Of a DNA stretch of 64,000 bases, positions 142-64,000 are shown piece after piece. The notes beneath the pieces are model-generated. The model was not told the origin of the DNA and did no database searches. It saw only the letters and a list, made by a program, of their open reading frames with translations. Source of the stretch: Deltaproteobacteria bacterium (GTDB lineage Bacteria; Myxococcota; JACRCW01); NCBI GenBank assembly GCA_016218805.1, contig JACRCW010000169.1:1-64000 (forward strand), read 5' to 3'. Made by a program: the position numbers and the translations under genes. Each line of letters opens with the position of its first letter. Position 1 is the stretch's first letter.

Positions 142-1191
142 GGAAAGCGCGGGTTCCATGTATTGCGCCACGTGGGTCTTCCCCTGGCGGGTCTGACCGG
201 CGAACGCCATGGAGGCCAGGTCATCCAGGTAGAGCACGTCCCCGAGCTCGCTGAGCTCCCGCAACATCTCCTGGGCACGCGCCTCCCATTGCCCGACGTA
301 GCTCATCCCCGCAATGAAGCGATTTCCGTCAACGCGCCACACGTCACGCCGCTGATTGGCCTTGCTGTAGGCAACGTGGAGCCGGCGCGTGAACTCATGC
401 ACCAGCGCGGTCTTTCCTGCGCCGGATGGGCCCACCAGGCACACCGCCAGACCCTCGCGCGCCTCAAAGGTGGACACCAGTTGCCGCACCAGCGCCTCAC
501 GACCGAGACACCGCTCCAGCGTGTCATCCTGCGCGGCGTGACTGAGGTTTCTGCAGACGGTGCGCAGCGTGTCGGCCGTCAGCCGCCTACGACGACGACG
601 CTCCTCCTTCTGCAACGGCGTCTCCGGCTCGCGCGTGCCCGGCGCCGCACGCGGTTTGTGCTGCGTCCTCTTCGCCAACCGCGGCAGCACGCTTGACGGG
701 TAGACATCCACCTCAAGGATGTCCAAACGCTCCCTATGGCGCGAAACGCAGCTTTCAAGCGATTCAGCACGGGTTGCGAGGAGGTGCTTGCCCAGACGCC
801 GCGCCAGGGTGTCCGGCAGGGAGTCCAGGGACGCCAGCGCAAAGCGCGCCTCCGGCAACCTGATTGGGGTCACGACGAAGAAGTCATCCTTCGGCCACTT
901 CTCAATGAACACCGACACCATGCCCTTCAACTCGGCCTTGCGGCCCCGCTTCGGGTCCCGCGCCACGGAGTCCAGCCGCACCTGCCGCAGGCTCATGTGC
1001 GGCGGCAGGGCAAACGCCGCCTGCTCCAACGCACTGCTGTGCTCGTACGTATCCATCACCATCAACGCGAGATCGTCCCTGAGTTCCGCGGCCGACCCGC
1101 CCGACGTCCGGAACTCCGGCATGGCAGGCAACCACATTTCCACGTGGCGCGCGGAATGACGATCCACGATGAGCGGCAGCTTCAGTTCCAC
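115..1191 (-). pseudogene. Clp/Hsp100-type AAA ATPase truncated by an insertion
   Basis: An open frame of 358 residues. Residues 1-230 are a divergent N-terminal region with a basic linker (KEERRRRRRL). The first Hsp100 AAA module then begins: Walker A GPSGAGKT at 254-261, the pore-side motif RFIAGMSYVGQWE near 291-303 and Walker B LYLDDLA near 320. The frame ends at QYMEPALSGPPALRMG, so the rest of module 1 and all of module 2 are missing. It is a paralogue of the upstream gene, with which it overlaps by 10 bases, so the two were probably co-transcribed. A transposase end lies directly downstream. The product is very likely inactive as an unfoldase, although the N-terminal half could still be made. 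Confidence 0.7.
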
Positions 1192-4100
1192 AGCGCCACC
1201 TCGTCCACGTCGAGCTGTTGTTCCAACCAGGCCTGCCAGATGTCGGCCAGGGGCGGCGGGTGGCCATCCACCAGCGGGTAGCCAGTCCTGGTGCGCAGGT
1301 CCTGGATCACGTGCTTGTCCCAGTCCACGCGCCGCACCTCAGCGCCGGGCTTGGCCTTCTCAATCTCCTCCAGGTCCGGCAGCGCGGCTCCCGCCCGCAC
1401 TGCATCAACCAGAATGCGCAGCAGAAACGTGTTCCCGTTGGTGATGACGCGGTGGACGCCGTGCTCCGCACGGAGCAACCACCGCGCTGAAGTACCACCA
1501 AACGTGAGCGCCACAGCGAGCGCCTCATCGCCGGGAGGCGGCTGCCGGTCGTCGGGGCGCTTCCACTGGGGCGCCTGGGTGATCCGCGGTGGCTTGCCGG
1601 GCCGGCCGGCCGGCGTCTTCACCTCCCGCACCACGAGCACCTGGCAGTCCGTGCAGCTTATGGCATTCCGGTAGGCATGAACCCACTGGCGGGCCTGGGC
1701 GGCTCCGCCGCGGCTCCACGTCATGACCACCCGCACCGGGCTCCGGGGAGGATGCATGGCGGCAAAGAGTTCTTCCGCCATGGGCCGGAGGCCCGCTTCC
1801 ACCGCCACCAGGTCCCCCCGCAACGAAGTGAGCGAATCCGCCGAACGATCGTAAAAGGCCTCAAACGCCACATCTTCAATGGCCGTGGCCTGGCGGGAAC
1901 CGTGCTCCAGTTTCTCCACGATTTCCCGGGCAACCGTGGCATCCTGGGATTGCTTTTCCGCGGCGCTGTGATCCGCCCAGAAGGCGGGATGTTTGCTCGC
2001 CTTGTCAAAGAGGGCGGTGCGCTCCCGCAACTGCGTGACCACGGCACTGCGCTGGAGCTTCATTAGGCGCGCGCGCAGCTCGGCGGCGTCCGCCAGCAGT
2101 TGTTCAACCTGCGCGGTCATGTCCGGCGCGCCACGGCTGTCACCAAGGTGCGTGAAGACCACCCTTTCACCGTCGGCTTCGGCCGCCAGCACTGCGCCCC
2201 GGGTGTTGGGATGGGACGCCAATGACGACGCCAGGGGAACCACCAGGTCGCGCTCCAGCGCACGTTTGAGTGGGCGGGCGCCGTAGCGCGGATCCACACC
2301 GTTCTTCAGCAGGAGCGAACGCGCAACCGCGCCCACCTCCATGCGTACTCCCAGGCGGCGCAGTCCTTCCCGACGGGGAACGGCCTGCAACTCACGGTCA
2401 AGCACGTGGTGGAGGACTGGTGGCGGCAGTGACGAGAAGACAATGACGTCATCCAGCCGGTTGAAGAGCTCCGGGCGGAAGAACCGCTCCACCTCGCCCC
2501 GGTAGTGCCTGCGCCGGTCAGCGTCCTCCGCGCCACCCTCCGCGGACCGGCCAAATCCCACTGTGGTGCGCAACGTGTCCGCGCCAAGGTTGGACGTCAG
2601 GATGATGACGGCGTTCCGGAAGTCCGTGAAGCGTCCCGTGGCGTCGGTCAGGCGCCCCTCCCCCAGCACGCCCAACAACGCGTCAAACACCGCCGGGTGC
2701 GCCTTCTCAATCTCATCCAGCAGCACCACGCAGAACGGCTCCCGCCGCACGGACGACGCCAGCAGCCCGGGACTCTCCGGGGTACCCAGGAGCCGCTCCA
2801 GCGCATCCGGCCCGGCGTATTCACCCATATCCAGGCGCACGAGGCGCTCGCGCGAGGAAAAGACGCATTCGCACAGCGCCTTGGCAAGTTCAGTCTTTCC
2901 CACGCCGGTGGGCCCGCAGAAGAACAACACCGCCATGGGCCGGTGTTCATCCGTCAGCCCGGCCTTGATCCGCGCCACGGCTTCCACCGCGCGGGCCACC
3001 GCTTCGTCCTGCCCCATCACCGCGCGTGCCATGCTGGCCTGCAGTTCCGCGCGCGGCATGGGCAGGTCGTCCCGGAGCAGCCGCTCGGGTAGGCCGCTTT
3101 CTGACGAGAAATGCCCCACCGCCACGTTCTCCGTGATGCGCGTGGTGCCGGCATGTGCCGCCGCGTCGGCGACGCGCCGGAGGAACGCGGCCCCCGTCCC
3201 AACCGCCGAACCATAGGGCCAGAACCGCCGGGCCAGCCGGAGGGTCAGCCGCACCACCTCGTCGTCAATCACAACCTTTCTGCGCGTGCCCTGGCGGCCG
3301 GCAACAGCCAGCAGGACGCGCTCCGCCTGGGCAGGGGGCGGTTCCTCCACGCGCAGCACGGTCCACTGCCGTGCAAAGGACTGGTTGATGTTCTCCACGC
3401 GTGACCACGCCTCCGGAGTTGCCTCCGCCACCACGCTGATACGACGGGTTGCCAGGAGCGGGGTGATCAATTGGGAGACATTCTCCTCGCTGTGTGCGCT
3501 CTTGCCCGCGTGCAACAGGTCCTCTGCCGTTCCCAGGTCCAGCAGCACCCGGGACCGCTCCGCCTCCGCAAACGCTCGGAGCGTGTCTCCCTGCCACCCA
3601 CCCAACATGCCGCCGCCGGCAATCAACCGCGGGCCGTCCAGGCGGAAGAACGGCCGCACGCGGCGGCCGGACGCCTGACGCTCCGCGGTCAACGCGCACG
3701 CAAGTTCATCCACCAGTGCCGTCTTGCCCACTCCGGCGCGCCCCACGATCACAACGGGCTCCGGACGTTCCGCCACCATCATGTTCCTGAGGCTGTGCAC
3801 CAGCGCATCCACGTGAAACGCGCGCTCCAGTGTTCCTTCAAGGGCCAACCGGTGCAGGGCCACGCCCTTCGCCTCCAGGAGCGGCGTGGCAAACCGGCGG
3901 CGCACCCTGGCCGTCCACTTCTCTTCGGGGAGATCTTCCGGCGGGCCGTCCTCATCGGAGGGTGCCGCCGTGTGACTCTCCTCGTCCGTATCCGCATCCG
4001 GAAGTTCCGGATCGTCGTCGTCCTGTGGATCGGGCAGGCGTTCACGATGAAGGTCCTTGGCCCCGATGTCAGACAGGCGAACCGGTTCGGCGGACACTTC

Positions 4101-4568
4101 CACGTGCTGGAACAACTCGGAACCGTCACTCCGCAGGCCCAGCAGCGAGTGGTCCCCCTGGGCCTCCAGATGCGCCTCCAGGAGGCGCTCCGCCGTGGTG
4201 GCCGCGTGTTCGTCGTCCTTCACCCAGGCGCGCCAATCCAGCCGCGGGACCCATACCTCCGCAAAGCCGGCGTGCACCGCCGTCAGCACGGCGGCAAACG
4301 CCAGCGGTTGCAGGTTGCGCCCTTGCGGTGTCCACACGGGAAGCGACTTGGGCGCCAGGCCCAGCGGGCGGAAGGCGGGACCATGCGGGAATGACGCCAT
4401 GAGGCGCGGATGCGTGCGGGAGATCATGTCATCCAGCGCCAGGGTGAGTTCCTCCAGCGCGGGTTCCAGCGCCACCGCGTGCAGCGAAAGCGAACGGAGT
4501 CCCTTGGGTACAACCGAAACCCGTCCGCTGGCATGGCGCGCCACAAGCGTGATGATGCGGAACCGCAT
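1182..4568 (-). CDS. Two-module Clp/Hsp100 ATPase fused to a release-factor-like domain
   Basis: A protein of 1128 residues. Residues 1-220 are a unique N-terminus ending in an acidic linker. AAA module 1 has Walker A GRAGVGKT (276-283), but its Walker B is degenerate (VLLDLG near 341). AAA module 2 is intact, with GPTGVGKT (552-559), VVLLDEIEKAH (614-624) and a normal D2-small domain (NGVDPRYGARPLKRAL). After TSNLGA comes VGFG (670-673), where ClpA and ClpC carry their ClpP-docking tripeptide. Residues about 817-1128 resemble peptide chain release factor 2: HPAFWADH (PCRF domain), RAEHGVHRV (1033-1041) and DLRTRTGYPLVDG near 1090. The GGQ catalytic motif is absent. The likely role is ATP-driven remodelling directed by a ribosome- or RNA-binding module; this is inference. 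The truncated paralogue follows with a 10-base overlap. Confidence 0.8.
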   Translation of the reverse strand: MRFRIITLVARHASGRVSVVPKGLRSLSLHAVALEPALEELTLALDDMISRTHPRLMASFPHGPAFRPLGLAPKSLPVWTPQGRNLQPLAFAAVLTAVHAGFAEVWVPRLDWRAWVKDDEHAATTAERLLEAHLEAQGDHSLLGLRSDGSELFQHVEVSAEPVRLSDIGAKDLHRERLPDPQDDDDPELPDADTDEESHTAAPSDEDGPPEDLPEEKWTARVRRRFATPLLEAKGVALHRLALEGTLERAFHVDALVHSLRNMMVAERPEPVVIVGRAGVGKTALVDELACALTAERQASGRRVRPFFRLDGPRLIAGGGMLGGWQGDTLRAFAEAERSRVLLDLGTAEDLLHAGKSAHSEENVSQLITPLLATRRISVVAEATPEAWSRVENINQSFARQWTVLRVEEPPPAQAERVLLAVAGRQGTRRKVVIDDEVVRLTLRLARRFWPYGSAVGTGAAFLRRVADAAAHAGTTRITENVAVGHFSSESGLPERLLRDDLPMPRAELQASMARAVMGQDEAVARAVEAVARIKAGLTDEHRPMAVLFFCGPTGVGKTELAKALCECVFSSRERLVRLDMGEYAGPDALERLLGTPESPGLLASSVRREPFCVVLLDEIEKAHPAVFDALLGVLGEGRLTDATGRFTDFRNAVIILTSNLGADTLRTTVGFGRSAEGGAEDADRRRHYRGEVERFFRPELFNRLDDVIVFSSLPPPVLHHVLDRELQAVPRREGLRRLGVRMEVGAVARSLLLKNGVDPRYGARPLKRALERDLVVPLASSLASHPNTRGAVLAAEADGERVVFTHLGDSRGAPDMTAQVEQLLADAAELRARLMKLQRSAVVTQLRERTALFDKASKHPAFWADHSAAEKQSQDATVAREIVEKLEHGSRQATAIEDVAFEAFYDRSADSLTSLRGDLVAVEAGLRPMAEELFAAMHPPRSPVRVVMTWSRGGAAQARQWVHAYRNAISCTDCQVLVVREVKTPAGRPGKPPRITQAPQWKRPDDRQPPPGDEALAVALTFGGTSARWLLRAEHGVHRVITNGNTFLLRILVDAVRAGAALPDLEEIEKAKPGAEVRRVDWDKHVIQDLRTRTGYPLVDGHPPPLADIWQAWLEQQLDVDEVALWN

Positions 4569-41730: not shown

Positions 41731-41945
41731 TGGCCGCGGAATGCGCAATTGGCAGGCACTTCGAAAGTTCCGTGGCACCGGGATCCGGAATTCCGCGCGC
41801 ACTGCGCGTGTTCAGGGCCCCCCGGATCCCGAATTCCGCGCCCACCGGGCGTGTTCAGTGCCACCCGGATCCCGAATTCCCGGGGGTACTCGCAGCTTCC
41901 GTGGCACGCCATTCCGGGAATCCGTGCGCACTCCTGCGTTGCGGC
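41731..41945. repeat. Array of about five 43-bp tandem repeats
   Basis: Units start at 41774, 41817, 41860 and 41903, each exactly 43 bases, with a weaker unit at 41731. The best pair shares CCGGATCCCGAATTCC, and the units at 41774 and 41817 also share GCGTGTTCAG at the same place. Each unit has an imperfect palindrome around GGGATCCxGAATTCC. Since 43 is not a multiple of three, the array is not a protein repeat. It lies between a decayed gene and the NACHT module. Confidence 0.8.
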
Positions 41946-42150: not shown

Positions 42151-43467
42151 ATGGCGAGTATTCCAGACTGGCGGAGTGCGTTCCCGTGGCTGCGGCCTGA
42201 CCGGCCGCCGGCAGACATGCGGCTGTATGTGGAACCCAAGTACCGGGCGGCGGAAAGTGCTTTGAAGCGGGTCCAGCGTGACCCTGGTGGATTTGCCAAG
42301 GTCCTCCTGGTGGGTCCGAGGGGCGGCGGCAAGAGCACCGAGTTGCGCAGGATCAGCCAACTTGCCAAAGACGACGCTATCGTCGTGGAGATAGACCTCG
42401 ACGCGTCCGGGGTCTCCGCGGCCAGCGTCTCGGCGTTCGACCTCCTGTATGTCACTTCGGCGGCACTGTTGCGGCACACCGCGGAGGGAACCGCTGAGAC
42501 ACTGTTCAAGGAACTCGCTGAAGCCTACGCCGGCAAGGAGGCGAAAAAGACCCTGGGGCCGCTCGCCGAGACACTCGCCGGTATTGCGACGTTTGCAACG
42601 GCGGCTACCGCCGTAGCGGCTGGCTCCGGACTCCTGGCGGGCGCGGCACCCCTCATCGGTGCGGCGAGCGCCACCACGGCGGGCGCACTCCGCCTTCTTG
42701 CCAGACCCACCGGCGTGATTGCCGAAACGTCGCCCCAGGGCTCGGCACTGATGAGGGTGAGCACCAAGATCACGCGGGAGGTTCGGTCGCAGTCCGACAA
42801 GCCGATTCTCGTGCTGCTTGACGGCCTGGAGAAGATGAATGGCGAAGCGGCGGAACGCTTCCGACAGATGTTTGTCCAGACTCGCCTGCTCGCCGATCCA
42901 ACGTGGTCCGCGGTCATCGCCGCACCGCCGTGCACGTTGACCGAAACCGCCTCCGCACTCGCATTCGTGCCCGTCACCGTCTGGGGTTTCGGGCCCGACG
43001 ATGGCGCGCGCGTGGTGCGGGCGCTTCAGCTGCGCCTGCAAGCCGCGGGTCTCGACATTCCGCGCGATGTTGAAACCGGCGTGCTGGAGTACATCGCCCA
43101 GATGAGCGGCGGCGTGCCGAACCACGCCATCAAACTGATGCAGGAGGCGGTTGCGGCCGCTGAGGGGAAGCCGCGGATGGGGCTCTCCATGGCGCAAGAA
43201 GCCGTCAGGTGGTTGGCCCAACAACTCGCACAGGGTCTGACAGGCGAGGACTTGGACGCGCTTGCGGCCGTTGACGAAGAACATCACCTGCGCGGGGACC
43301 GCGCCTCGGCGTTGTTCGCTGACGGCAGAGTGATTGCGCAGCCGCCTTCGGACGAATCGGACGCACCCGAATTCGTGGTCCACCCCGTGCTCCAGCGCAC
43401 CGTCAAAGTGCATGGGACGCGCCGGGCAGCGCGCGATGTCCCCGAAACCGAGCCAGCCGAGGAATGA
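42151..43467 (+). CDS. P-loop ATPase, first gene of a NACHT conflict module
   Basis: A protein of 438 residues. Walker A is GPRGGGKS (55-62) within KVLLVGPRGGGKSTELRRIS, and Walker B is ILVLLDGLEK near 219. Between them, residues 139-183 are strongly hydrophobic and Ala/Gly-rich, which could insert in a membrane. The C-terminal 100 residues look like a winged-helix-type region (LTGEDLDALAAV). The F/GxRGxGKSTELRRL style of P-loop belongs, as I recall, to ATPases encoded beside NLR-like partners in bacterial conflict systems. Its stop overlaps the NACHT gene by 4 bases. TCG-rich codon use differs from the host genes. Confidence 0.7.
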   Translation: MASIPDWRSAFPWLRPDRPPADMRLYVEPKYRAAESALKRVQRDPGGFAKVLLVGPRGGGKSTELRRISQLAKDDAIVVEIDLDASGVSAASVSAFDLLYVTSAALLRHTAEGTAETLFKELAEAYAGKEAKKTLGPLAETLAGIATFATAATAVAAGSGLLAGAAPLIGAASATTAGALRLLARPTGVIAETSPQGSALMRVSTKITREVRSQSDKPILVLLDGLEKMNGEAAERFRQMFVQTRLLADPTWSAVIAAPPCTLTETASALAFVPVTVWGFGPDDGARVVRALQLRLQAAGLDIPRDVETGVLEYIAQMSGGVPNHAIKLMQEAVAAAEGKPRMGLSMAQEAVRWLAQQLAQGLTGEDLDALAAVDEEHHLRGDRASALFADGRVIAQPPSDESDAPEFVVHPVLQRTVKVHGTRRAARDVPETEPAEE

Positions 43468-45860
43468 CCCGCTACCGCGATGCCGTGACTGCCGCCTTGC
43501 GGCACCCGCTGGTCGGGCAACCCGGCGTCTTCCTGCTCATCGTACCGTCCCGGGAGCACAAGGAAATCGGCGCCGAGGTAGCGCGGGTCCTGCCGACCGA
43601 ACGAATCTCCCCACTGGTGCCGGGCGCAGCCGCCGCGGACGACAAGCAACCGTGGATCATCCTTGGGCTCCCCCGCGATTCCGCGACGCGAAAAACGGCG
43701 CTGCAGGAACTCAATGGGCGGCGCGACCGGTTGGCAGCCGCCAACCGGCAGCTGGTGCTCCTCGTGACTCGGGCGGAGTTGAAGGACGTCCAAAGATACG
43801 CGGGCGATCTGTATTCGCGCGTGCGCTTCAACGCGGTTATTCCGTTTGAGCCGGACCCCACGGTGGGTGTCGCGGAAGCGCGATCCCAGCTTGGTGAGTG
43901 GTACCACCGCCGCTACGGCAAGCTGGACCTGCGCGGACTCGTGCGCGACAGCACCGAAGACATCGGGTGGGGAATCGAGAGCATCTACCAGGAACTGCGG
44001 GCAATGCCGGCTGACCTGTCCGGCGAATTCGATGCCCGTTTCGACCGGGGTGGACGCCTGCGCATGTCGTTTGAGCTGGGCGTTGGCGTGCCGTTGGTAC
44101 GCCTTGTGGCGGCACCCGACCATGTCGTGGTGGTGCTGGCGCACCCGGGGTCCGGCAAGACCTTCTTCTTGCGCTGGCTGGCCCTGCGCGCTGCCCGGGA
44201 GCCGACGCTCGGGATGAGCACCCCGCTACCCCTGCTGTTCCCGCTGGCCGCGTTTGGGGGAGCGGCCAGCGTGGACGAAATCGTGGCGATCATGGTGGAC
44301 ACGCTGCTGGAGGACTGCGCCCCGGCAGCGCACGTGCTGGGCGCGGCGCTGCGCAACGGTGATGCGCTCTTGTTGCTGGATGGGTTGGACGAGGTGGGGG
44401 AGGAAGCGCTGCGTGTCCAGGTCGCGGCCCGGGTGGTGGAATTCCATTCGCGTTACCCGTCGTGCCGTTTGGTGGTGACCAGTCGGCTGGCGGGCTATCC
44501 CGAAGCGCCGCTGCCGTTTCCGGCCTGCACCATCGCGCCCCTGGATCGGAATGCCATCAAGGCGTTCCTGGTCCAGTGGTGTGAACTGTACGCGGTGGAT
44601 CTGCACGGGGAAACAGCCCGTGACCGGGGGCGCCAGGACGGCGCGCGACTTGCCCAGGACGTCCTTGGCAACCCGCAGCTCACCGAGCTCGCGGGTAATC
44701 CCCTCCTGCTCACGGTGCTGGCGATCGTGCATCGGACGGGGGTTCGCCTCCCGGATCACCGCGTTGAACTGTACTCGCACGCCACGCGCGTGCTGGTGGA
44801 ACGCTGGAACCGTGCCCGCAGCCTGGGCGGCGACACCCATGCACGGCCCCTGACCAGTGCCGATGCAGCCAGGCTGCTGGGTCCGCTGGCGTTGCGGGCC
44901 GTCCGGCGTGCGTCGCGTGGAACCGTTCCGGAAGCCGAGTTGCGCGAGAGCCTCGAACGCGAGCTCTCAGATCGCGCCATCAAGGGTCTTGCGTCCGTGG
45001 ACGAGGCCATTGACCTGTTCAAGCGTGCGCTGGGGTTGCTCGTGGAGGTTGCGCCCGGCCTGTACGGCTTCATGCACCTGACGCTCGCGGAGTACCTGGC
45101 GGCGTGGGAATTGGTACGCACCGGGGAACTGGAGAAGTTGGTGGACCGGCCCACGGAGGCATTCCTGCCCGAGTGGCGCGAAACGCTGTTACTTGCCCTC
45201 GGCGAGCTTGGTGTGAATCGCGGCGAGGATGCGCGGTTGGCGGCCGCCATCCGCGCATTGTTGCGCAGCGCAAGGCGGCGGCGCGGACGTCCTTCGGTGG
45301 GGGTGCCGTCGTTGTTGGCGGGGCTGCTCGCGGACGACCCCGGGCTGACTCTCACGGTGGCGCAGAACATCGCAGACGAGTTGATTCCTCGGTGGTGGTT
45401 CAAACGCGACTACGGTGAAAAACGGCTCGGAGATTTTCTGGCGGAGGCGCTGAACCTGGCTTCCCGAATCGGCGCCGGTCGGTATGCATCCCTGGTCGTG
45501 GAGCGCCTTGAGAAGCACATCAACACGCTGCCCGCGCACATGCAGGTACCGCAGAATGCCGAACGGGTGCTGCGTGTGCTTCTGGTCTGCGGTGCCGGGC
45601 CACCGGCCGTGATGGCGCTGTTGGCGCGGTTGCCGAACGGGCTCTTCGTTTGGTGGCGAGGGGATGGCGAAGAGTTCACGCTCTCGCCAACCATTTCCAC
45701 GCTGGTTCGAGAGGGGGCGGTCCGACTGGAGGCGCACAGGGAGGACAAGACGACCACATCGGTTGAGTTCCTCGGCATGACCGGCGATCGGGGGCGATTT
45801 CGCACGGAGGGCCGCTTGGTGTATGCGCGCATCGCTGAGGTTCCCGGAAAGCGCGGATGA
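43464..45860 (+). CDS. NACHT-domain STAND ATPase (bNACHT-like)
   Basis: A protein of 798 residues. Residues 1-160 form a small alpha-beta domain (LNGRRDRLAAANRQLVLLVT) of a type seen in NLR-like conflict proteins. The NACHT module has Walker A AHPGSGKT (226-233), LLLLDGLDEV (302-311) and the sensor-like VVTSRLAGY. GNPLLLTVLAIVH and FMHLTLAEYLAAWEL (536-550) are the conserved NACHT-associated winged-helix segments. The last 250 residues are a helical, probably sensing, region. Bacterial NACHT proteins act in anti-phage defence by oligomerising on recognition. It overlaps the P-loop ATPase gene by 4 bases; the pair is one unit. Confidence 0.8.
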   Translation: MTRYRDAVTAALRHPLVGQPGVFLLIVPSREHKEIGAEVARVLPTERISPLVPGAAAADDKQPWIILGLPRDSATRKTALQELNGRRDRLAAANRQLVLLVTRAELKDVQRYAGDLYSRVRFNAVIPFEPDPTVGVAEARSQLGEWYHRRYGKLDLRGLVRDSTEDIGWGIESIYQELRAMPADLSGEFDARFDRGGRLRMSFELGVGVPLVRLVAAPDHVVVVLAHPGSGKTFFLRWLALRAAREPTLGMSTPLPLLFPLAAFGGAASVDEIVAIMVDTLLEDCAPAAHVLGAALRNGDALLLLDGLDEVGEEALRVQVAARVVEFHSRYPSCRLVVTSRLAGYPEAPLPFPACTIAPLDRNAIKAFLVQWCELYAVDLHGETARDRGRQDGARLAQDVLGNPQLTELAGNPLLLTVLAIVHRTGVRLPDHRVELYSHATRVLVERWNRARSLGGDTHARPLTSADAARLLGPLALRAVRRASRGTVPEAELRESLERELSDRAIKGLASVDEAIDLFKRALGLLVEVAPGLYGFMHLTLAEYLAAWELVRTGELEKLVDRPTEAFLPEWRETLLLALGELGVNRGEDARLAAAIRALLRSARRRRGRPSVGVPSLLAGLLADDPGLTLTVAQNIADELIPRWWFKRDYGEKRLGDFLAEALNLASRIGAGRYASLVVERLEKHINTLPAHMQVPQNAERVLRVLLVCGAGPPAVMALLARLPNGLFVWWRGDGEEFTLSPTISTLVREGAVRLEAHREDKTTTSVEFLGMTGDRGRFRTEGRLVYARIAEVPGKRG

Positions 45861-45982: not shown

Positions 45983-47470
45983 TCAGGTCTCATGCTCACT
46001 GACGGGCTGCAGCAGGTCCTCCAGCCGGCGCTGCCGGTGCAACGTGCGCAGCGCCTCCACCACGGCGGGGTCCACCCGTCCCTTCTCCAGCCGAGCCAGC
46101 ACCGCAAACGCGCTCTCCAGGCCGGTGGCCACGCGGTAGGGCCGCGTGGAGGTGATGGCATCCGTCACGTCCGCCACGGCGACAATGCGCGCCTCCAGCG
46201 GGATCTGCGTGCCCTTGAGCCCGTCCGGGTAGCCGCTGCCGTCCAGGCGCTCGTGGTGGGCGCGGATGATGGGCACCACGCAGCGGAACTGGTCCACGTC
46301 ACGCAGCAGCTCATCCCCCAGCGTGGTGTGCGTCTTGATGACCTCAAACTCGTCCGGGGTCAGCAGGTCCGGCTTGAGCAGCACCGAGTCACGCACGCCG
46401 ATCTTCCCGATGTCATGCAGCAGCGCGCCCACGCGGACCATCTCCTTCTTCTCCGCGGGCAGGCGCAGTTCCTCCGCCAGGCGCACGCTGATGGCGGCCA
46501 CGCGGTCCGTGTGACCGGCCGTGTACCCATCCCGCGCTTCCAGCGCGCGCACCATGGCGTTGAGCACCTTGACCTGCTGCTCCTCCTGCGTGCGCCGCGC
46601 CACCGCCAGCTTGCGGTTGGTGGACACCAGGTCCCCGGTCACGCGCCGCAGGTCATGCACCAGCAGGCGCCCGTGCAGCGCGCGCTCCATCCGGTCCGCC
46701 ACCTCCTGCAACCCCGGCAGCGGGACGCCCATGAAGTCCACCGCGCCCGCGCCCAGCGCGGCCGTCGCCGCCGTCCACGTGGGCTCGGGGTCCACCACAA
46801 TCACCGGGAGTGACTCATCCAGCGTGCGCGCCAGGTGGACAATGAGCGTGGTGTCCATCCCGCCCTGCGCCTGCACTACCACCAGGTCAAACGCCCGGTT
46901 GGTCATCAGCGCCTGCGCGGCCCCCAGCCCAGCTTCGGAGGTGATCTCGTAGCGCCGCAGTTCACAGGCCTCGCGCAACACGTCAGACGCGGAGGCGTGC
47001 ACGCCCACAAACAGCGCGCGTGGCGGACGCGCCTCCGGCGCCCGCGCGGACTTGAGCGTGTCCAGCTCCACGCGCAGCAGCGCCTCCGCGCGAACGCGCT
47101 CCACCACCGAGAGCACCACCTGCCGCAGCTCCATGGGCCGCAGGGGCTTGGAGAAGAAGCGGTGCAGCTCCCCGGTGTTCACCGCCTCCACCGCCTTGCT
47201 GAACTCTGTGGACGCCGTCATCAGCATCCGCGCGGCCGCCGGGTGCCGGCTCTTGGCGCGCGCCAGCACCTGCGTCCCGCTGACAAATGGCATCATCTCA
47301 TCAACAAGGATGGCCACCGGGTGCAGCCCTTCCAGCAACTCCAGCGCGCGCTTCCCATCCGACGCAGCGTGCACGTTGAAGTCCCGCCGGAACGTCTTGC
47401 ACAACAGGTCCAGAAACGCCTGGTCATCGTCCGCGATGAGAAAGTCTCCGCTGGCGTTTGACTCGGGCAC
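45983..47470 (-). CDS. Response regulator with HD-GYP phosphodiesterase domain
   Basis: A protein of 495 residues. Receiver domain 1 has the acidic pair (FLIADDDQAF), the phosphoacceptor Asp57 (ILVDEMM) and Lys108 (FFSKP). A second receiver-like domain (about 151-265) lacks the phosphoacceptor (VVVQAQGG). A coiled coil then leads to HD-GYP with HTDRVA, HDIGK (352-356) and HHERLDGSGYPDGL (405-418), complete for c-di-GMP hydrolysis. GTG at 47470 has GGGGGAG close upstream; an ATG at 47521 is a longer option. It is the last gene after the MglA-like and PilZ genes. Confidence 0.92.
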   Translation of the reverse strand: MPESNASGDFLIADDDQAFLDLLCKTFRRDFNVHAASDGKRALELLEGLHPVAILVDEMMPFVSGTQVLARAKSRHPAAARMLMTASTEFSKAVEAVNTGELHRFFSKPLRPMELRQVVLSVVERVRAEALLRVELDTLKSARAPEARPPRALFVGVHASASDVLREACELRRYEITSEAGLGAAQALMTNRAFDLVVVQAQGGMDTTLIVHLARTLDESLPVIVVDPEPTWTAATAALGAGAVDFMGVPLPGLQEVADRMERALHGRLLVHDLRRVTGDLVSTNRKLAVARRTQEEQQVKVLNAMVRALEARDGYTAGHTDRVAAISVRLAEELRLPAEKKEMVRVGALLHDIGKIGVRDSVLLKPDLLTPDEFEVIKTHTTLGDELLRDVDQFRCVVPIIRAHHERLDGSGYPDGLKGTQIPLEARIVAVADVTDAITSTRPYRVATGLESAFAVLARLEKGRVDPAVVEALRTLHRQRRLEDLLQPVSEHET

Positions 47471-47545
47471 GGCGCTCCCCCGGGCCCCTCCCCCGGAGGC
47501 GGCCGCGCCCCATCCTGCCACAAGGCCGGCCCCGCGGCAGTCCGC

Positions 47546-47902
47546 TCACCCCCGCCGGGCCGCCGCCCGCGCCACGAGGTCACGCAGGGCGGCGCGCGAA
47601 GGCTCCTCCATCTGCGTGAACGTGAGCGCCATGCCGGCGGCCGAACCCTCCGTGGCAACCGGCAGGCACCGCACCACCACCGCGGTGCCCTCCAGCAGCG
47701 TCCCGCCGTCCTCCAGCAGGATGCGGAACTGCACGCGCGTGCCCATGGGCCGCGGGCGGTCGGTGCGGAGGAACAGGCCGCCTTCGCTGACGTCAACGGT
47801 GTGCGCGTCCAACAGCGCATCCACAGAGGTGGCGCGGTACTGCACCATGACGGTCAGCGGGACGCGGACAAAACGGCGGCGGTTCTCTGGCGGGATGGTC
47901 AC
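47546..47902 (-). CDS. PilZ domain protein
   Basis: A protein of 118 residues. RRRFVRVPL carries the RxxxR c-di-GMP-binding arginines and DVSEGGLFLRT the D/NxSxxG motif, together the full PilZ signature. GTG at 47902 begins just before the domain. It lies 11 bp after the MglA-like gene and 75 bp before the HD-GYP gene, so one operon probably encodes a c-di-GMP receptor and a c-di-GMP phosphodiesterase. The partner is unknown. Confidence 0.9.
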   Translation of the reverse strand: MTIPPENRRRFVRVPLTVMVQYRATSVDALLDAHTVDVSEGGLFLRTDRPRPMGTRVQFRILLEDGGTLLEGTAVVVRCLPVATEGSAAGMALTFTQMEEPSRAALRDLVARAAARRG

Positions 47903-47913
47903 CTGGGCACCGC

Positions 47914-49002
47914 TCAGAGCGCTTGCTGTTTCACCCGCGCGGACACCAGCAGGTACAGCGCAAACAGCGCGTCCTCCGCGGTCAGCGCCGCGTCCGGCGC
48001 GGACGCCAGCCGGCACAGGCGCAGGTATTCGCGCCCGTCAATGCCCAGCAGCGCCGCCCGGGCCATGGGTCCGCCCGTCCCGCTGGTGCCCGGCAGCGCG
48101 TCCAACAGCAGCGCCATCAGCTCCGCGGCCGCGCGCACGGCCGTGGCAAACTCGCGCGCCACGATGTGCCGCTCCACGCGCTCCACACCCGCCCCGTCCC
48201 CCGGCCACAGGGGCGCAAAACTCAGCCCCGTCCCCGCCAGCGCGGAGCGTGCGGGCAGCGAGGCCGGCGGCGGCTGGGTGGGCACCGGGAGGGAGGGAGC
48301 GGCGGCGGGTGCGGTGGCCTCCTCCACCGCCTCGCTGGCCACGGCGGACAGGCGCGCCGTCAGGCCGTCTTCGGCCACCAGCTGCGTTTCACCGGTGGGC
48401 GCGCGCCGGGCACCCTGCTGCCGGCGTCTGAGGTCCCGCACCACGGACGCGCTGATCTCCTTGAGCGCCTGCAGCACCCCCGTGCCCTTGGACGCGCAGG
48501 TCTCAAACGCCGGCGCGCCGTGGTGGTTGTACTCGGCGTTCATCGTCGCCACGGCCATGGCCGTGGGCAGGTCACGCTTGTTCCACTGGAACACGTGCGG
48601 GAACCGCGCCAGGTCCAGCCCCATCTCTGCCAGGTTGTCCTCCAGGTCCTGCAGCGACAGGCGGTTGTTGTCCCGCGCCGCCTCCTGGCTGTCCGCCACA
48701 AACACCACGCCGTCCGCACCGTTGAGCACCAGCTTGCGCGTGGCCGCGTAGAAGATCTGTCCCGGCACCGTGTACAGCTGCAGCCGCACCGGCATTTCCT
48801 GCACGCGCTCAATGCTGATGGGCAGGAAATCAAAGAACAGCGTGCGGTCGCCCTCGGTGGCCAGCGTCACCAGCTCGCCGCGGCGCTCCGCCTTGATGAC
48901 GGAGTACAGATACTTGAGCGAGGTGGTTTTCCCGGAGAGACCCGGTCCGTAGTAGACAATCTTGGCGGAGATCTCGCGGGCGAGCGGATTGATGAGGGAC
49001 AC
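47914..49002 (-). CDS. MglA-like Ras-type GTPase with a C-terminal extension
   Basis: A protein of 362 residues. Residues 1-190 match MglA, the polarity GTPase of gliding bacteria: KIVYYGPGLSGKTT (G1 at 19-27), DRTLFFDFLPI, LYTVPGQ (78-82, in place of DxxG), GVVFVADSQ and NKRD (141-144). MglA itself is about 195 residues; here a Pro/Ala-rich linker and an extra helical domain of about 90 residues follow. The GTG at 49002 begins exactly at the MglA N-terminus, with AGG 5 nt upstream. A role in polarity or motility signalling is inferred from the family and from the PilZ and HD-GYP neighbours. Confidence 0.9.
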   Translation of the reverse strand: MSLINPLAREISAKIVYYGPGLSGKTTSLKYLYSVIKAERRGELVTLATEGDRTLFFDFLPISIERVQEMPVRLQLYTVPGQIFYAATRKLVLNGADGVVFVADSQEAARDNNRLSLQDLEDNLAEMGLDLARFPHVFQWNKRDLPTAMAVATMNAEYNHHGAPAFETCASKGTGVLQALKEISASVVRDLRRRQQGARRAPTGETQLVAEDGLTARLSAVASEAVEEATAPAAAPSLPVPTQPPPASLPARSALAGTGLSFAPLWPGDGAGVERVERHIVAREFATAVRAAAELMALLLDALPGTSGTGGPMARAALLGIDGREYLRLCRLASAPDAALTAEDALFALYLLVSARVKQQAL

Positions 49003-49059
49003 GCGGCCTATATAGTCAAAGGAAGTCGGGCGCCCCAAGTCGCCCACCCGGAGGTCCCA

Positions 49060-50022
49060 CTGATAGCCGGTGACCTGTCCACCATGAGCCTGGCTGACCT
49101 GCTGCAGTGGGTGGAGCAGGCCGGCTGCAGTGGCCACGTCAGCCTCCACCGCGACGGCGCCGTCACCTGGCTCAACGTCTCCCAGCGGGAGGTCACCATG
49201 CTGTCCCCGGTGCGTGGCGGACCGGGCGCGGGCTCGCCGGAGGATCCCACCGCCACGGACCGCCTGCTGGATCTGTTCCTGGAACGGCACGGGCGCTTTG
49301 AGTTTGTCCCGCGCGTGGCGTTGGAGGGTGGCGTGCCCCTGCACCTGCCGCTGCGCGTGGTGGTCATGGAGGGGCTGCGCCACCTGGATGAATGGCCCCG
49401 CCTGGCGGAGGCCTACCCGCGCGACGCCGCCACCCTGGCGCGCACGGCGACGCCGGCGCCCGACCGGCTCTCCGGCGTGCAGCGATTGATCCTGCGCTTT
49501 GCGGAGTCCCGCCTCACCCTGGGCGAAGCGCGCCTGAAGCTGGGCGTCTCCCGTCCCGCGCTGCTGCGCCACGTGGAGGAGGTCCGCGGCATGGGGCTGG
49601 TGGAGGTGGAGGGCACGGAGTCCGGCGTGGACCCCGTGGCCCAGCTGCTGGCGCAGGCGTCCGTGCTGGTGCAGGAGCGGCAGTTTGAGGAGGCGGCCAT
49701 TGTGTTTGGGAGCCTGCTGGCATCCGACCCCACGGACCTGCGCGTGCGCCGCCTGCTGCGCGAGGCGGAACGGGAACAGGTGGCCGCGCTCTACCAGCAG
49801 CTGCAGCCGGTGAGCGTGGTGCGGCTGGTGGACCCGGCCGCGCTCCCCTCACGCAAGCTCAGCCGCACGGACCGGGAGATTGCCGAGCGCGTGAACGACC
49901 GCTGGGACGTGGCCAGCCTGGTCCTGGCCAGCCCGCTGCGCGAGGTGGAGACGCTGCGCAGCATCCGGCGCCTGTGGAAGATGGGCATTGTGGACCTGGA
50001 CCAGGCGGCCATGCCCGGCTGA
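49060..50022 (+). CDS. DUF4388 (PATAN-like) domain protein, probable non-standard start
   Basis: A protein of about 320 residues. The N-terminus IAGDLSTMSLADLLQWVEQAG is the DUF4388 signature, a domain that often joins signalling proteins in myxobacteria. The C-terminal half has a helix-turn-helix-like part (LTLGEARLKLGVSRPALLRHVEEV) and a helical repeat. The only nearby ATG (49084) lies inside the conserved motif and 28 nt from a perfect GGAGGT (49050-49055). CTG at 49060 and ATA at 49063 lie 4 and 7 nt after it, and no ATG, GTG or TTG is available in frame. I therefore place the start at 49060, with 49084 as the fallback. It is divergent from the MglA-like gene. Confidence 0.75.
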   Translation: MIAGDLSTMSLADLLQWVEQAGCSGHVSLHRDGAVTWLNVSQREVTMLSPVRGGPGAGSPEDPTATDRLLDLFLERHGRFEFVPRVALEGGVPLHLPLRVVVMEGLRHLDEWPRLAEAYPRDAATLARTATPAPDRLSGVQRLILRFAESRLTLGEARLKLGVSRPALLRHVEEVRGMGLVEVEGTESGVDPVAQLLAQASVLVQERQFEEAAIVFGSLLASDPTDLRVRRLLREAEREQVAALYQQLQPVSVVRLVDPAALPSRKLSRTDREIAERVNDRWDVASLVLASPLREVETLRSIRRLWKMGIVDLDQAAMPG

Positions 50023-60778: not shown

Positions 60779-61218
60779 GTGTGGATTCTGGAGGTCAGTT
60801 CCGCCCAGGGCAACACAGGTGGAGCACCCGCCGGCCCTCGCCGCGCCGCGTCAGGTCTAGCTATAACTAGCGGTTTCTTCCACGTGCAGGTCGTAGACCC
60901 GCATGCATCGACAAGTTGCCGCCCAGCGACGTCAGATCGCTTGGCGGCTGCACTTGACCAAAAACTTGGCGCGCCAATCAGGATTCCGGCCGTCCGGTTT
61001 TCGGCTTCAGGGAAAGGTCTGGAACCCTGCCTCAGGTCTGAAGCCGGCGCGGAGGACCCACCCTCCGTGCGCGGGTGGTGACGGGCGAACCGTTGACAGC
61101 ATGAGGCCTTGGCCCCTGCACTGTGGCCGCCAGGGTCGTCGGCGACGCCGAGGCGTTGACCGACCCTTGCGCCTGACCATACGGTTGGCACCCTTGAGCC
61201 GCCGCGAATGGGAGCGCC
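60779..61218. other. Non-coding region before the ABC-3C operon
   Basis: These 440 bp contain no convincing gene. The base composition is lower in GC than in the flanking genes, and open frames lack ribosome-binding sites. It should hold the promoter of the ABC-3C operon and that of the minus-strand membrane protein gene. Confidence 0.5.
61156..61185 (+). promoter_or_regulatory. Possible sigma-70 promoter of the ABC-3C operon
   Basis: TTGACC at 61156-61161 and TACGGT at 61180-61185 are 18 bp apart. Transcription would begin near 61193, about 26 nt before the GTG start at 61219. The -10 element is weak. A TTGACA at 61093-61098 is a better -35 match but has no acceptable -10 element. Confidence 0.3.
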
Positions 61219-61974
61219 GTGTCTGAATCCGACATCAGCCCCAAGGACGCCAAGCTGCTCTGGGGGTTGGCCGCCGCCCGCTGCTCCAAGCCGGATTGCC
61301 GACGTCATCTCGTCGCCCATCCCACTGCTGGGGATCCCGCGAAGGTCCTTGGTGAAATGGCGCACATCGTTGCGGAGAAGCCTGGAGGCCCCCGGGGCGA
61401 TGCCACGTTTCCCGTGGACCAGAGGAATGCCTACGCAAACCTGATCCTCTTGTGCCCCACTCACCACACCGAGATCGATGGCCAGCCGCTCGCTTACCCC
61501 GTTGCTCTCCTCCACCAATGGAAAGCCGAGCACGAAAGATGGATCGCGCTTGAGCTGGATGCTCAGGTCCCGCGGGTGACTTTCAAGGAACTTGAAGCCA
61601 CTACCAGCGCGATTGCATCCAGTTCATCGCCGCCCACACAGCAACTTACGCTTACCCGGATACCGGAGAAGATGGCCCGCAACGGATTCACCCAGAAGGT
61701 GCGCGTCATGCTCAACCAGGCGCTTGCAGGGGCCGCAGAGGTCCATGCTTTCGTGCAGCACGCCGCCACCTACGACTCCGAATTCCCCGAACGGTTGCGG
61801 GACGGCTTCCTGCAGTCCTACCGGGCAGGCCAGAACGCAGGGCTGCTCGGAGACACGTTGTTTCTCCACCTTGTTGACTTTGCATGCCCGAAGTCTGTGG
61901 ACCTACTGGACCGAGCAGCCGCCCTCTCCGTCCTCGGGTACTTGTTCAGCGTGTGCGAGGTGTTTGAACCATGA
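61219..61974 (+). CDS. ABC-3C effector: HNH nuclease with C-terminal ABC-3C domain
   Basis: A protein of 251 residues. The N-terminal HNH nuclease has Cys22 and Cys27 (RCSKPDC), EMAHIVAEKPGGPRG (His49), and YANLILLCPTHHTEID (Asn74, Cys79, His82/83), giving both the metal-structural cysteines and the catalytic His-Asn-His. The C-terminal 110 residues (GFTQKVRVMLNQAL, LSVLGYLFSVCEVFE) match the C-terminal domain of ABC-three-component systems. The GTG at 61219 has GGGAG 4 nt upstream. Its stop overlaps the middle-component start (ATGA). It is predicted to cut nucleic acid when the system is triggered. Confidence 0.8.
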   Translation: MSESDISPKDAKLLWGLAAARCSKPDCRRHLVAHPTAGDPAKVLGEMAHIVAEKPGGPRGDATFPVDQRNAYANLILLCPTHHTEIDGQPLAYPVALLHQWKAEHERWIALELDAQVPRVTFKELEATTSAIASSSSPPTQQLTLTRIPEKMARNGFTQKVRVMLNQALAGAAEVHAFVQHAATYDSEFPERLRDGFLQSYRAGQNAGLLGDTLFLHLVDFACPKSVDLLDRAAALSVLGYLFSVCEVFEP

Positions 61975-62198
61975 TCCTCCCCAGCAAGCACATTCCGTCT
62001 CGTTCGTCCTTGCTTGGCGTTGGAGGCATCCTGCTGTCGCGCGTCAACCGCCCCATTACGGCCACATCGCTGTGGGAGCAGGTGCGGGGATTGCCGGAGG
62101 TGGGAACCTACTACCGTTTTGTGCTTGCGCTTGATCTTCTCTTCCTCATCGGCGCGATTGACCTGAACGATGGTCTTCTCAAACGGACCGCCCCATGA
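61971..62198 (+). CDS. ABC-3C middle component
   Basis: A protein of 75 residues. MILPSKHIPSRSSLLGVGG, SLWEQVRGLPEV and FVLALDLLFLIGAIDLNDG follow the small winged-helix-like ABC-three-component middle component (type 6 in current naming, from memory). It is thought to bridge the effector and the ATPase. It overlaps both neighbours by 4 bases, so the three proteins are translationally coupled. Confidence 0.85.
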   Translation: MILPSKHIPSRSSLLGVGGILLSRVNRPITATSLWEQVRGLPEVGTYYRFVLALDLLFLIGAIDLNDGLLKRTAP

Positions 62199-63940
62199 TC
62201 CTGCGCCGAGTGTTCGCGAACGTGGCATCGTTCCGCGCGGTCAGCCTCGAGCCGGGGTTCAACGTCGTGTTGGCAGACACCACCCGGAATTCATCCGAGA
62301 GGGACTCGCGCAACGGCCTTGGAAAGACCCTGCTTCTTGAGGTGGTCCATTTCTGCCTTGGGAGCAAGGCAGTCAAAGGTCAGGGGGTCTGCGTTCCCGC
62401 CCTTGAAGGTTGGGAGTTTTCGCTGGAGATGGAAGTGGCAGGCCGGAATTTGACGGTCACAAGGCGTACGAATGACCCACGATGGGTTCTCCTGGCCGGC
62501 GCCAACCTTTCCCTCCCAGTTCCCGTCGTGAACCACCCATCCCTCGCTCAGCCGGCCATGCCGGTTGACGATTGGAATCGCGCTTTGGGGGCAATGACAT
62601 TCGGGTTGCCCACCTCCGGACAAGACAAGTACGCACCCTCGTTCAGGTCCCTTTTCTCCTACTTCGCACGCAAGTCACGTGGTTCTGCACTTGACCCCTT
62701 CGCGCACTTCGAACGGCAACATGAGTGGGACAAGCAGGTGCACAACGCCTATTTGTTGGGCCTTCGCTGGGAAACAGCGTCAGAACTTCAGTTCATCAAG
62801 GACCGCAAGGCGGGGTTGAAGAGCTTCAAGAGCGCGATCAAGGCCGGGGTCGTGAAGGGCTACGCCGGCACCCTGGCCGACTTGGAGGCAAAGCGCGTGC
62901 GGCTGGAGGCAGACCTCGAACGACGAGTGGCCGATCTTGATGCCTTCCGCGTGCATGAGCAATTCCGAGAGATTGAGCAGGAGGCAGATCGTCTCACCCA
63001 ACAGATTCATTCCGTCTCGGATGACAACTTTGGCAAGCGCCGGTTGCTGACGACGTACAGGCGCAGCCTTGAGGAGGAGGCGCCACCTGGGCGGGCCGAT
63101 GTTGCTCGGCTCTATGCGGAGGCGGGGGTGGCACTTCCTGATGCCGCCAAACGCCGCCTGATGGATGTGGATGCGTTTCATGTGGCCGTGGTGAGCAATA
63201 GACGGTCTTTCCTCGACGCGGAGTGCCAACGCCTTGAGCGAGAGATCGCGGCGAATGATGCGCGCATTCATGATCTCAGCACAGCGCGCGCCACGCACAT
63301 GGAAATACTCAAGACGCACCGTGCTTTGGATGAGTACACTCGCCTCCAGAATGAGCTGGGTGTCCAGAGGATGGAACTCGCGAGCTTGCGCACCCTGGTG
63401 GAAAACATGCGCCAGCTTCGTGAGGGCGAGGGGGAGGTGCGACTTCAACAGGCGCAGACAGTCCAGGTTGGCCGTCGCGATTTTGACGAACGAGCATCGG
63501 TGCGCGATCAGGCAATTCGCCTGTTCAACGACAACAGCCAGTTCTTGTACGAGGCTCCTGGAAAACTTCTGGTCGATTTCGAGGAGAGAGGGTTCCGCTT
63601 TCGTGTGGAAATAGAACGGGCTGGTTCGGATGGCATTGAACAGATGAAGGTGTTCTGCTTCGACTTGATGCTTGCGCAACTATGGGCCACCCGTGACCCC
63701 TCGCCACGCTTTCTTTTCCACGACAGCCGATTGTTCGACGGTGTGGACGAGCGACAGCGTGCCCGGGCCCTGATTCTGGCGCAGCGTGAGTCGCACCAGC
63801 GAGGCTTCCAGTACATTGTGACATTGAACAGTGACGCGGTTCCAACGTCGCTACTCGGCAATTTCTCCCTTGACCAATATATGCGCCTCCGTCTCACGGA
63901 TAGCGACCCGGCTGGTTGCCTCCTCGGTATTCGGTTTTGA
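62195..63940 (+). CDS. ABC-3C SMC-like ATPase (DUF2326)
   Basis: A protein of 581 residues. The N-terminal ABC half has FNVVLADTTRNSSERDSRNG followed by LGKTLLLEVVHFCLG, a P-loop of the DUF2326 type. A long coiled coil spans about 200-420. The C-terminal half has FDLMLAQLWATRD and FLFHDSRLFDGVDERQ, the Walker B/D-loop region typical of DUF2326. These are the ATPases of ABC-three-component systems, thought to sense foreign nucleic acid and switch on the effector. It is complete and ends at 63940. Codon use is TCG-rich, unlike the host genes. Confidence 0.88.
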   Translation: MILRRVFANVASFRAVSLEPGFNVVLADTTRNSSERDSRNGLGKTLLLEVVHFCLGSKAVKGQGVCVPALEGWEFSLEMEVAGRNLTVTRRTNDPRWVLLAGANLSLPVPVVNHPSLAQPAMPVDDWNRALGAMTFGLPTSGQDKYAPSFRSLFSYFARKSRGSALDPFAHFERQHEWDKQVHNAYLLGLRWETASELQFIKDRKAGLKSFKSAIKAGVVKGYAGTLADLEAKRVRLEADLERRVADLDAFRVHEQFREIEQEADRLTQQIHSVSDDNFGKRRLLTTYRRSLEEEAPPGRADVARLYAEAGVALPDAAKRRLMDVDAFHVAVVSNRRSFLDAECQRLEREIAANDARIHDLSTARATHMEILKTHRALDEYTRLQNELGVQRMELASLRTLVENMRQLREGEGEVRLQQAQTVQVGRRDFDERASVRDQAIRLFNDNSQFLYEAPGKLLVDFEERGFRFRVEIERAGSDGIEQMKVFCFDLMLAQLWATRDPSPRFLFHDSRLFDGVDERQRARALILAQRESHQRGFQYIVTLNSDAVPTSLLGNFSLDQYMRLRLTDSDPAGCLLGIRF

Positions 63941-64000
63941 TGAATTCGCGGTGCCGTACGGACCGCCGGATTACGCGTCGGGAGCCTTCCTGAACACCGT

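What the first reader, a model, noticed from the sequence alone, without database searches (positions are those of the whole stretch)
42151..45860. Two-gene P-loop ATPase and NACHT module, candidate anti-phage system
A P-loop ATPase with a hydrophobic central segment is coupled (4-base overlap) to a NACHT protein with intact Walker A and B motifs and the FMHLTLAEYLAAWEL segment. The N-terminus of the NACHT protein looks like a domain from NLR-like conflict systems. TCG-rich codon use and adjacent repeats suggest acquisition. The hydrophobic segment could be the membrane-damaging effector.
Basis: partly seen in the sequence, partly recalled or inferred. Interest (0 to 1): 0.75.

Follow-up and report, generated by a model that had tools for sequence, protein, structure and literature searches.

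The report
Two-gene ATPase–NACHT candidate immune module
Two overlapping bacterial genes encode a pair of energy-switch proteins that resembles predicted immune alarm systems of multicellular bacteria; relatives of the pair carry other sensor or killer domains, but protection against viruses has not been shown.

Summary
Gene A (42151-43467, ATPase) and gene B (43464-45860, NACHT) are intact and overlap by ATGA. Their codon use is atypical for the window, and a 43-bp tandem repeat lies just upstream. A keeps its P-loop in 39 of 39 sequences; B-N lacks one in 36 of 36, although its low-confidence model matches AAA+/STAND folds. The rest of B varies: NACHT here; TPR, nSTAND1-WD40 or nothing elsewhere. 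A is fused to TIR in Calothrix and to the vWA protein of a VMAP ternary system in Nostoc. This matches the logic of the predicted nSTAND2 two-gene conflict system (Kaur 2021, PMC8195603), whose sequences I could not compare. Best reading: a conflict (immunity/cell-suicide) module in which B senses, B-N couples, and A is the ATPase output. Defence is inferred, not shown. No defence genes lie beside it in this window, and the "membrane effector" idea is weak. New variant of a known kind.

The parts
42151..43467 (+). Gene A: 438-aa ORC/RFC-, STAND- and KAP-like AAA+ ATPase
42313..42336 (+). Gene A Walker A (GPRGGGKS, residues 55-62)
   Evidence: P-loop kept in 39 of 39 A sequences
42574..42717 (+). 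Gene A Ala/Gly-rich hydrophobic stretch before Walker B (residues 142-189); peak 154-172
   Evidence: (pLDDT under 50)
42805..42831 (+). Gene A Walker B (ILVLLDGLE, residues 219-227)
43120..43122 (+). Gene A residue 324: Asn where most relatives have Arg in SGGxxR (sensor-2-like)
43464..43467 (+). ATGA overlap: start of B / stop of A
43464..45860 (+). Gene B: 798-aa B-N + NACHT + variable C-terminus
43464..43859 (+). B-N, constant partner domain (residues 1-132): AAA+/STAND-like alpha/beta fold without P-loop
43722..43724 (+). Arg87 of B-N, invariant in the alignments; candidate arginine finger (inference)
44118..44588 (+). NACHT P-loop domain (residues 219-375)
44139..44162 (+). NACHT Walker A (AHPGSGKT)
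44367..44393 (+). NACHT Walker B (LLLLDGLDE)
45069..45113 (+). FMHLTLAEYLAAWEL, in the region matching NLR NACHT winged-helix structures
45231..45857 (+). Variable C-terminus of B (residues 590-798), candidate sensor, no family match
41756..41927 (.). Four 43-bp tandem repeats upstream of A; role unknown

Best explanation
The pair is a two-gene NTPase conflict module: a member of a broad family of A + B-N systems in which A is an active ORC/STAND/KAP-like ATPase and B joins a constant, nucleotide-site-less AAA+/STAND-like domain (B-N) to a variable sensor/switch, here a NACHT module. Proposed working: B's C-terminus detects an invader or infection cue; its NACHT domain binds ATP and oligomerises; B-N, brought together, docks on A and completes or stimulates A's ATPase ring (its invariant Arg may act in trans); A then delivers the output, most likely stopping or killing the infected cell. 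Shown: gene pair, intactness, motifs, constant A + B-N pairing, variable C-termini, A fused to TIR and to a VMAP-system vWA protein in relatives. Inferred: complex formation, the direction of signalling, the trigger, the output, and any anti-phage role.
For: Same pair and 4-base overlap in Archangium SZUA-606 and Myxococcota MAG.78. B-N profile: 16 places in 14 of 195 phylum genomes; 13 were already in the profile; of 3 new places 2 have A upstream and 1 is an antisense chance match, so all 15 real places have A (one with an internal stop) directly upstream. Sixteen further A loci: 15 have sequence downstream and all 15 start a B-N-type ORF within -84 to +26 bp of A's stop; 1 runs off its contig. 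B-N groups are homologous: E 6.8e-7, 6e-6 and 7.1e-8, against at best 0.025 for shuffled or reversed controls. P-loop in 39 of 39 A, 0 of 36 B-N. B residues 1-120 match AAA+/STAND structures (Avs5 STAND Z 9.2, 2.7 A over 107); B 359-680 matches NLRP/NLRC4/NOD2. A matches ORC/Cdc6 (Z 12.2), RADAR RdrA (Z 10.2, 4.2 A over 170), CED-4 and NRC4. A-TIR fusion, TIR E 1.5e-33; A behind a vWA protein next to MoxR and VMAP. Immunity-type neighbours on Acaryochloris plasmids.
Against: No defence genes beside the pair in this window or obvious in MAG.78. No PADLOC model gives a meaningful match to A or B. A versus B-N homology is not detected by sequence (hhalign P 0.34-0.51), so 'eroded STAND' rests on a low-confidence model (mean pLDDT 49.7; residues 1-120 about 52-78). 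Cyanobacterial plasmids may be rich in such genes and no baseline was computed. A's sensor-2-like Arg is Asn here. No experiment.
Confidence: 0.6

Rival explanations
1. A signal-dependent regulator, not a defence system: B senses a metabolite or stress, A (ORC-like with a winged-helix-like C-terminus) binds DNA or remodels a complex, as SWACOS-type STAND regulators do.
For: A's best structural matches are ORC/Cdc6 initiators; TPR partners in most Myxococcota copies; ordinary neighbours: CHAD, PurU-like, TadA-like, HD-GYP-type, PilZ.
Against: A-TIR fusion and VMAP-linked fusion; scattered presence, 1 of 58 relatives by gene A; foreign-looking codons.
Confidence: 0.25
2. One reading: A is a membrane-damaging effector through its hydrophobic segment, triggered by NACHT protein B.
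For: Ala/Gly-rich stretch 142-189 lies inside the P-loop domain between Walker A and B, a place where KAP NTPases carry membrane segments (recalled); KAP model hits in relatives over cut-off (34.4, 24.8, 24.7 bits against 20). Peak hydropathy 1.61, 1.58, 1.93 in the three NACHT-type A proteins.
Against: Borderline hydropathy; in 10 other A proteins examined the region reaches 1.5 in only two (L044 1.53, L046 1.51); the model gives no reliable structure there (pLDDT under 50). KAP is not listed for A itself.
Confidence: 0.2
3. Plain bacterial NACHT (NLR-like) defence gene with an incidental upstream ATPase.
For: NACHT domain over cut-off; weak similarity to antiphage NACHT protein EruA (28.3 bits against cut-off 1000).
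Against: A and B-N travel together wherever B-N was found, with or without NACHT.
Confidence: 0.08

Closest known systems
nSTAND2 two-gene conflict system (Kaur et al. 2021, PMC8195603; section 15 and passages read)
   Same: Two adjacent genes; one active STAND NTPase; a second gene with an eroded NTPase-like domain fused to variable modules; predicted counter-invader role.
   Different: Published fusions are mostly GT4 or HEPN; here NACHT (relatives: TPR, nSTAND1-WD40). Both published proteins are STAND by sequence; here B-N versus A homology is not significant. Sequences of that family were not available to compare.
[quoted passage not shown] 2020, PMC7159879; sections 30 and 33 and passages read)
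   Same: An A-family ATPase is the C-terminal module of the vWA protein beside MoxR and VMAP in Nostoc C057.
   Different: No MoxR, vWA or VMAP gene was found among the ten window neighbours scanned.
Bacterial NLR-like NACHT proteins (bNACHT, EruA)
   Same: Intact NACHT with NLR-like winged-helix region.
   Different: N-terminus is B-N rather than an enzymatic effector; an ATPase gene A always upstream.
KAP P-loop NTPases
   Same: Insertion inside the P-loop domain (KAP feature recalled); relatives of A score above the KAP cut-off.
   Different: A itself is not listed by the KAP model.
RADAR RdrA / ORC-Cdc6
   Same: Fold of A.
   Different: No deaminase partner in the pair; no origin role known.

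Membership tests
nSTAND2 two-gene system | Two adjacent genes, one with an active STAND-type NTPase | tested here: met
   (motifs intact; activity not measured)
nSTAND2 two-gene system | Second protein has a STAND domain with eroded NTP-binding motifs | tested here: inconclusive
   No P-loop in 36 of 36 B-N and AAA+/STAND fold match, but low-confidence model and no sequence homology to A
nSTAND2 two-gene system | Eroded protein fused to variable modules | tested here: met
nSTAND2 two-gene system | Sequence membership in the published family | not testable with these tools
   Source data of PMC8195603 not available; no nSTAND2 model listed
NACHT-clade STAND (B) | NACHT domain over cut-off with Walker A/B | tested here: met
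NACHT antiphage protein EruA (NF058535) | Score over curated cut-off | tested here: not met
   28.3 against 1000 bits
KAP NTPase (A) | PF07693 over cut-off | tested here: not met
   Not listed for A; met by relatives
DS-41 antiphage system (NF053860) | Score over curated cut-off | tested here: not met
   12.2 bits and 13.7 bits against 370
VMAP ternary system | MoxR, vWA and VMAP genes adjacent | tested here: not met
   Ten window neighbours scanned, none found
Anti-phage defence system | Protection against phage | not testable with these tools
   Needs plaque assays

The most novel reading that the evidence does not exclude
A + B-N is the constant core of a widespread, largely undescribed class of two-gene immune switches: an active ATPase that can carry effectors (TIR, vWA-linked) is controlled through a catalytically dead AAA+/STAND adaptor (B-N) that plugs in interchangeable second sensors, including whole NLR-like proteins (NACHT here, nSTAND1-WD40 in cyanobacteria). 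It would be a modular two-stage NTPase relay with the dead domain supplying the activating arginine in trans.
Probability: 0.35. Interest if true: 0.75.

Novelty: new variant of a known kind. Interest (0 to 1): 0.52.

Why it matters
If right, one conserved pairing rule (A next to B-N) would let many unannotated pairs in multicellular bacteria be recognised as immune modules, though no Pfam, NCBIfam or PADLOC model tried here names B-N. It would also show an NLR-like NACHT protein acting through a separate partner ATPase rather than a fused effector.

Tried and rejected
Gene A as plain ABC or generic AAA: rejected, since the profile finds RFC-type chains best and the fold points to ORC/Cdc6. 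B-N as a relative of A by sequence: not supported; kept only as a structural suggestion. Hydrophobic segment as the family's common effector: rejected, not conserved. Empty-site test: no syntenic relative; the HD-GYP-type neighbour gave no match in the single class relative G001. Phage or viral carriage: none found (viral contigs; 102, 103 phages). Gene A on plasmids with the window protein itself: no match; B-N of L052: no match; relatives were found only through intermediate A proteins. A single-protein B-N search with MAG.78 in 192 genomes found only G166. DS-41 link: too weak. The full-length structure model of B is poor; its Foldseek list had nothing at E 0.001 or better. A truncated A-like fragment elsewhere in the genome (L132) has no recognised partner. 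L050 (G121) has an A gene with an internal TAG; it was left out of alignment A6 and of the tree. The L123 match (G124) was also reported with one internal TGA but was kept. L113 was left out of alignment A9 for its uncertain start. Several A8-profile rows were second fragments of loci already counted. Literature: seven searches listed no paper that I recognised as describing this A + B-N family beyond the nSTAND2 and ternary-system papers; subscription papers are not held.
Full report
WHAT IS THERE. Gene A (42151-43467, 438 aa) and gene B (43464-45860, 798 aa) are intact and share ATGA. B carries a Pfam NACHT domain over cut-off at residues 221-373; A has only sub-threshold AAA_16/AAA_22 matches. 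PADLOC gives nothing meaningful; NCBIfam gives Sll1717-family ATPase (19.6 against 75 bits) for A and EruA (28.3 against 1000) for B. The window is on contig C143 of an unnamed 6.4-Mb genome. A relative from the same phylum, G166, corresponds to Archangium SZUA-606, so I infer Myxococcota.

CODONS, REPEATS, SURROUNDINGS. GC3 is 0.76 and 0.79 in the pair, and TCG is 18 of 54 serine codons; near neighbours mostly have GC3 0.88-0.94, but the right end of the window is as low. A 43-bp unit is repeated four times at 41756-41927, and a probe from it hits only there in the genome. There is no tRNA in the window. Ten neighbours scanned with Pfam are an aldo/keto reductase, CHAD, a formyltransferase (PurU-like), a deaminase (TadA-like), an HD-GYP-type response regulator, PilZ, a small-GTPase-like protein and three without a family. 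PADLOC hits among ten neighbours are generic HD and deaminase cross-matches. Acquisition is plausible, not proved: no empty site could be examined.

THE PAIR IS CONSERVED BUT RARE. With gene A alone as query, 1 of 58 relatives (the genome itself) matched. With B, 31 of 195 phylum genomes matched, nearly all in the NACHT domain only; apart from the window itself only G166 matched over the whole N-terminus. A genome-contig scan gave two loci: L027 (the same contig as G166's) and L028 (MAG.78). Both encode A then B with the same 4-base overlap; A is 49% and 35% identical, B 46% (truncated by the contig end) and 34%.

B-N IS THE CONSTANT PARTNER OF A. A profile of three A proteins found 30 of 195 genomes at E 0.001, with 13 near-full-length matches including the window and G166. 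I fetched 12 regions. Downstream of each A gene there is an ORF whose first ~140 residues resemble B's N-terminus, overlapping by about 70 bp in the TPR group, 4 bp in L055, or 8 bp apart in L052; in L050, whose A has an internal stop, the partner was seen in the gene list. A B-N profile (14 sequences) found 16 places in 14 of 195 genomes. Thirteen were in the profile by construction. Of the three new ones, G121 and G123 have A upstream and G102 is antisense to another gene. A wider A profile found 16 more A genes. One ends at its contig; the other 15 are followed, from -84 to +26 bp, by an ORF with a B-N-type N-terminus, judged by eye. Fourteen of these 15 were aligned. Profile comparison joins the two Myxococcota B-N groups at E 6.8e-7 and the plasmid group to them at 6e-6 and 7.1e-8; 20 shuffled controls were 0.43 or worse and three reversed ones 0.025 or worse. 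The Arg of the N..R motif is invariant in each alignment. One A-like fragment of 205 aa elsewhere in the window's own genome has no recognised partner.

VARIABLE ENDS. B-N is followed by NACHT (window, L027, L028), TPR (most Myxococcota), a second P-loop-like stretch in L052 by sequence (no Pfam family), or nothing (L055, L110, L118 and similar). On plasmids of Nostoc and Acaryochloris the partner is B-N, TPR, nSTAND1 or another STAND-type P-loop and, where the C-terminus was scanned, WD40. In Acaryochloris the two genes overlap by the same 4 bases. Calothrix NIES-4101 has A, a second A fused to TIR (E 1.5e-33), then a B-N protein annotated as WD-40. In Nostoc C057 the A domain (profile E 6.3e-48 at a set database size of 100,000) is the C-terminal module of a SAV_2336-type protein beside MoxR and a protein with VMAP-M1 and VMAP-C; that SAV_2336 proteins are the vWA component is recalled. 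Acidisarcina has A then B-N-TPR. Neighbours on the Acaryochloris plasmids are CHAT, NB-ARC and TIR, or NACHT, HicAB and integrases. These plasmids may be rich in such genes generally; no baseline was made.

FOLDS. The A model (mean pLDDT 63.5) matches ORC/Cdc6 (Z 12.2, but 16 A over 218), RdrA of RADAR (Z 10.2, 4.2 A over 170), NRC4 (Z 9.5) and CED-4 (Z 9.0). The B model is poor (49.7). Its residues 1-120 match AAA+/STAND chains, best the Avs5 filament (Z 9.2, 2.7 A over 107), and 359-680 match NLRP9/NLRP3/NLRC4/NOD2 at Z about 7-8 with large rmsd; most of these Z values are near the tool's stated background. All 39 A sequences keep a P-loop and none of 36 B-N has one. Sequence profiles do not join B-N to A, so 'eroded STAND' is a structural suggestion.

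TREE. Among 39 A domains the three NACHT-type A form a clade (100/99), nearest to two stand-alone-B-N types with moderate support (93/92); deep branches are weak and several rows are long.

HYDROPHOBIC SEGMENT. Peaks of 1.61, 1.58 and 1.93 occur in the three NACHT-type A proteins; of the other ten, L044 (1.53), L046 (1.51) and L053 (1.39) show peaks above the 1.3 listing threshold in this region. It lies within the P-loop domain, as in KAP NTPases (recalled). KAP model matches exceed the cut-off in relatives but not in A. A membrane role is possible, not the family's rule.

MECHANISM. I favour a two-stage relay: B's C-terminus senses, NACHT oligomerises, B-N couples, A outputs. A is chosen as output because A, not B-N, is fused to TIR and occupies the effector position of a VMAP-system protein. 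Kaur 2021 (section 15 read) proposed that an active and an eroded STAND form a hetero-ring with variable modules on the eroded one, the same logic. In that paper the variable modules are called effectors; here they look more like sensors or switches. That difference is my inference.

NOVELTY. Searches of the held library listed no paper I recognised as describing this NACHT-bearing pair. 'nSTAND2' appears in one relevant paper. Whether A/B-N is nSTAND2 cannot be settled here. DS-41 is a validated system in PMC13092281 (passages read), but A scores far below its model. I rate this a new variant of a known kind.

Noticed in passing
G000 contig C59 5771-6067 (L132 5636-6250, minus): Truncated A-like ATPase frame (205 aa, GHRGTGKTTQLRR) with no recognised partner; possible decayed copy in the window's own genome.
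   Followed up: partly
L139 9363-11456 (Calothrix NIES-4101 plasmid): An A-family ATPase fused to a TIR domain, between a plain A gene and a B-N protein annotated WD-40: a three-gene version.
   Followed up: partly
window 43120-43122: The sensor-2-like Arg of SGGxxR in gene A is Asn here; the TIR-fused A of Calothrix also lacks it (SGGHVP).
   Followed up: no
L050 (G121 contig C11): Gene A carries an internal TAG while its partner frame is open.
   Followed up: no
window 1182-4568 (minus): Large ORF (1128 aa) with a weak NACHT/P-loop match at 3657-3758 (E 8.4e-4).
   Followed up: no
window 61000-64000: GC falls from about 0.70 to 0.59 and GC3 to about 0.7: another compositionally odd stretch.
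   Followed up: no
window 45983-49600: HD-GYP-type response regulator, PilZ protein and an Arf/MglA-like GTPase side by side.
   Followed up: no
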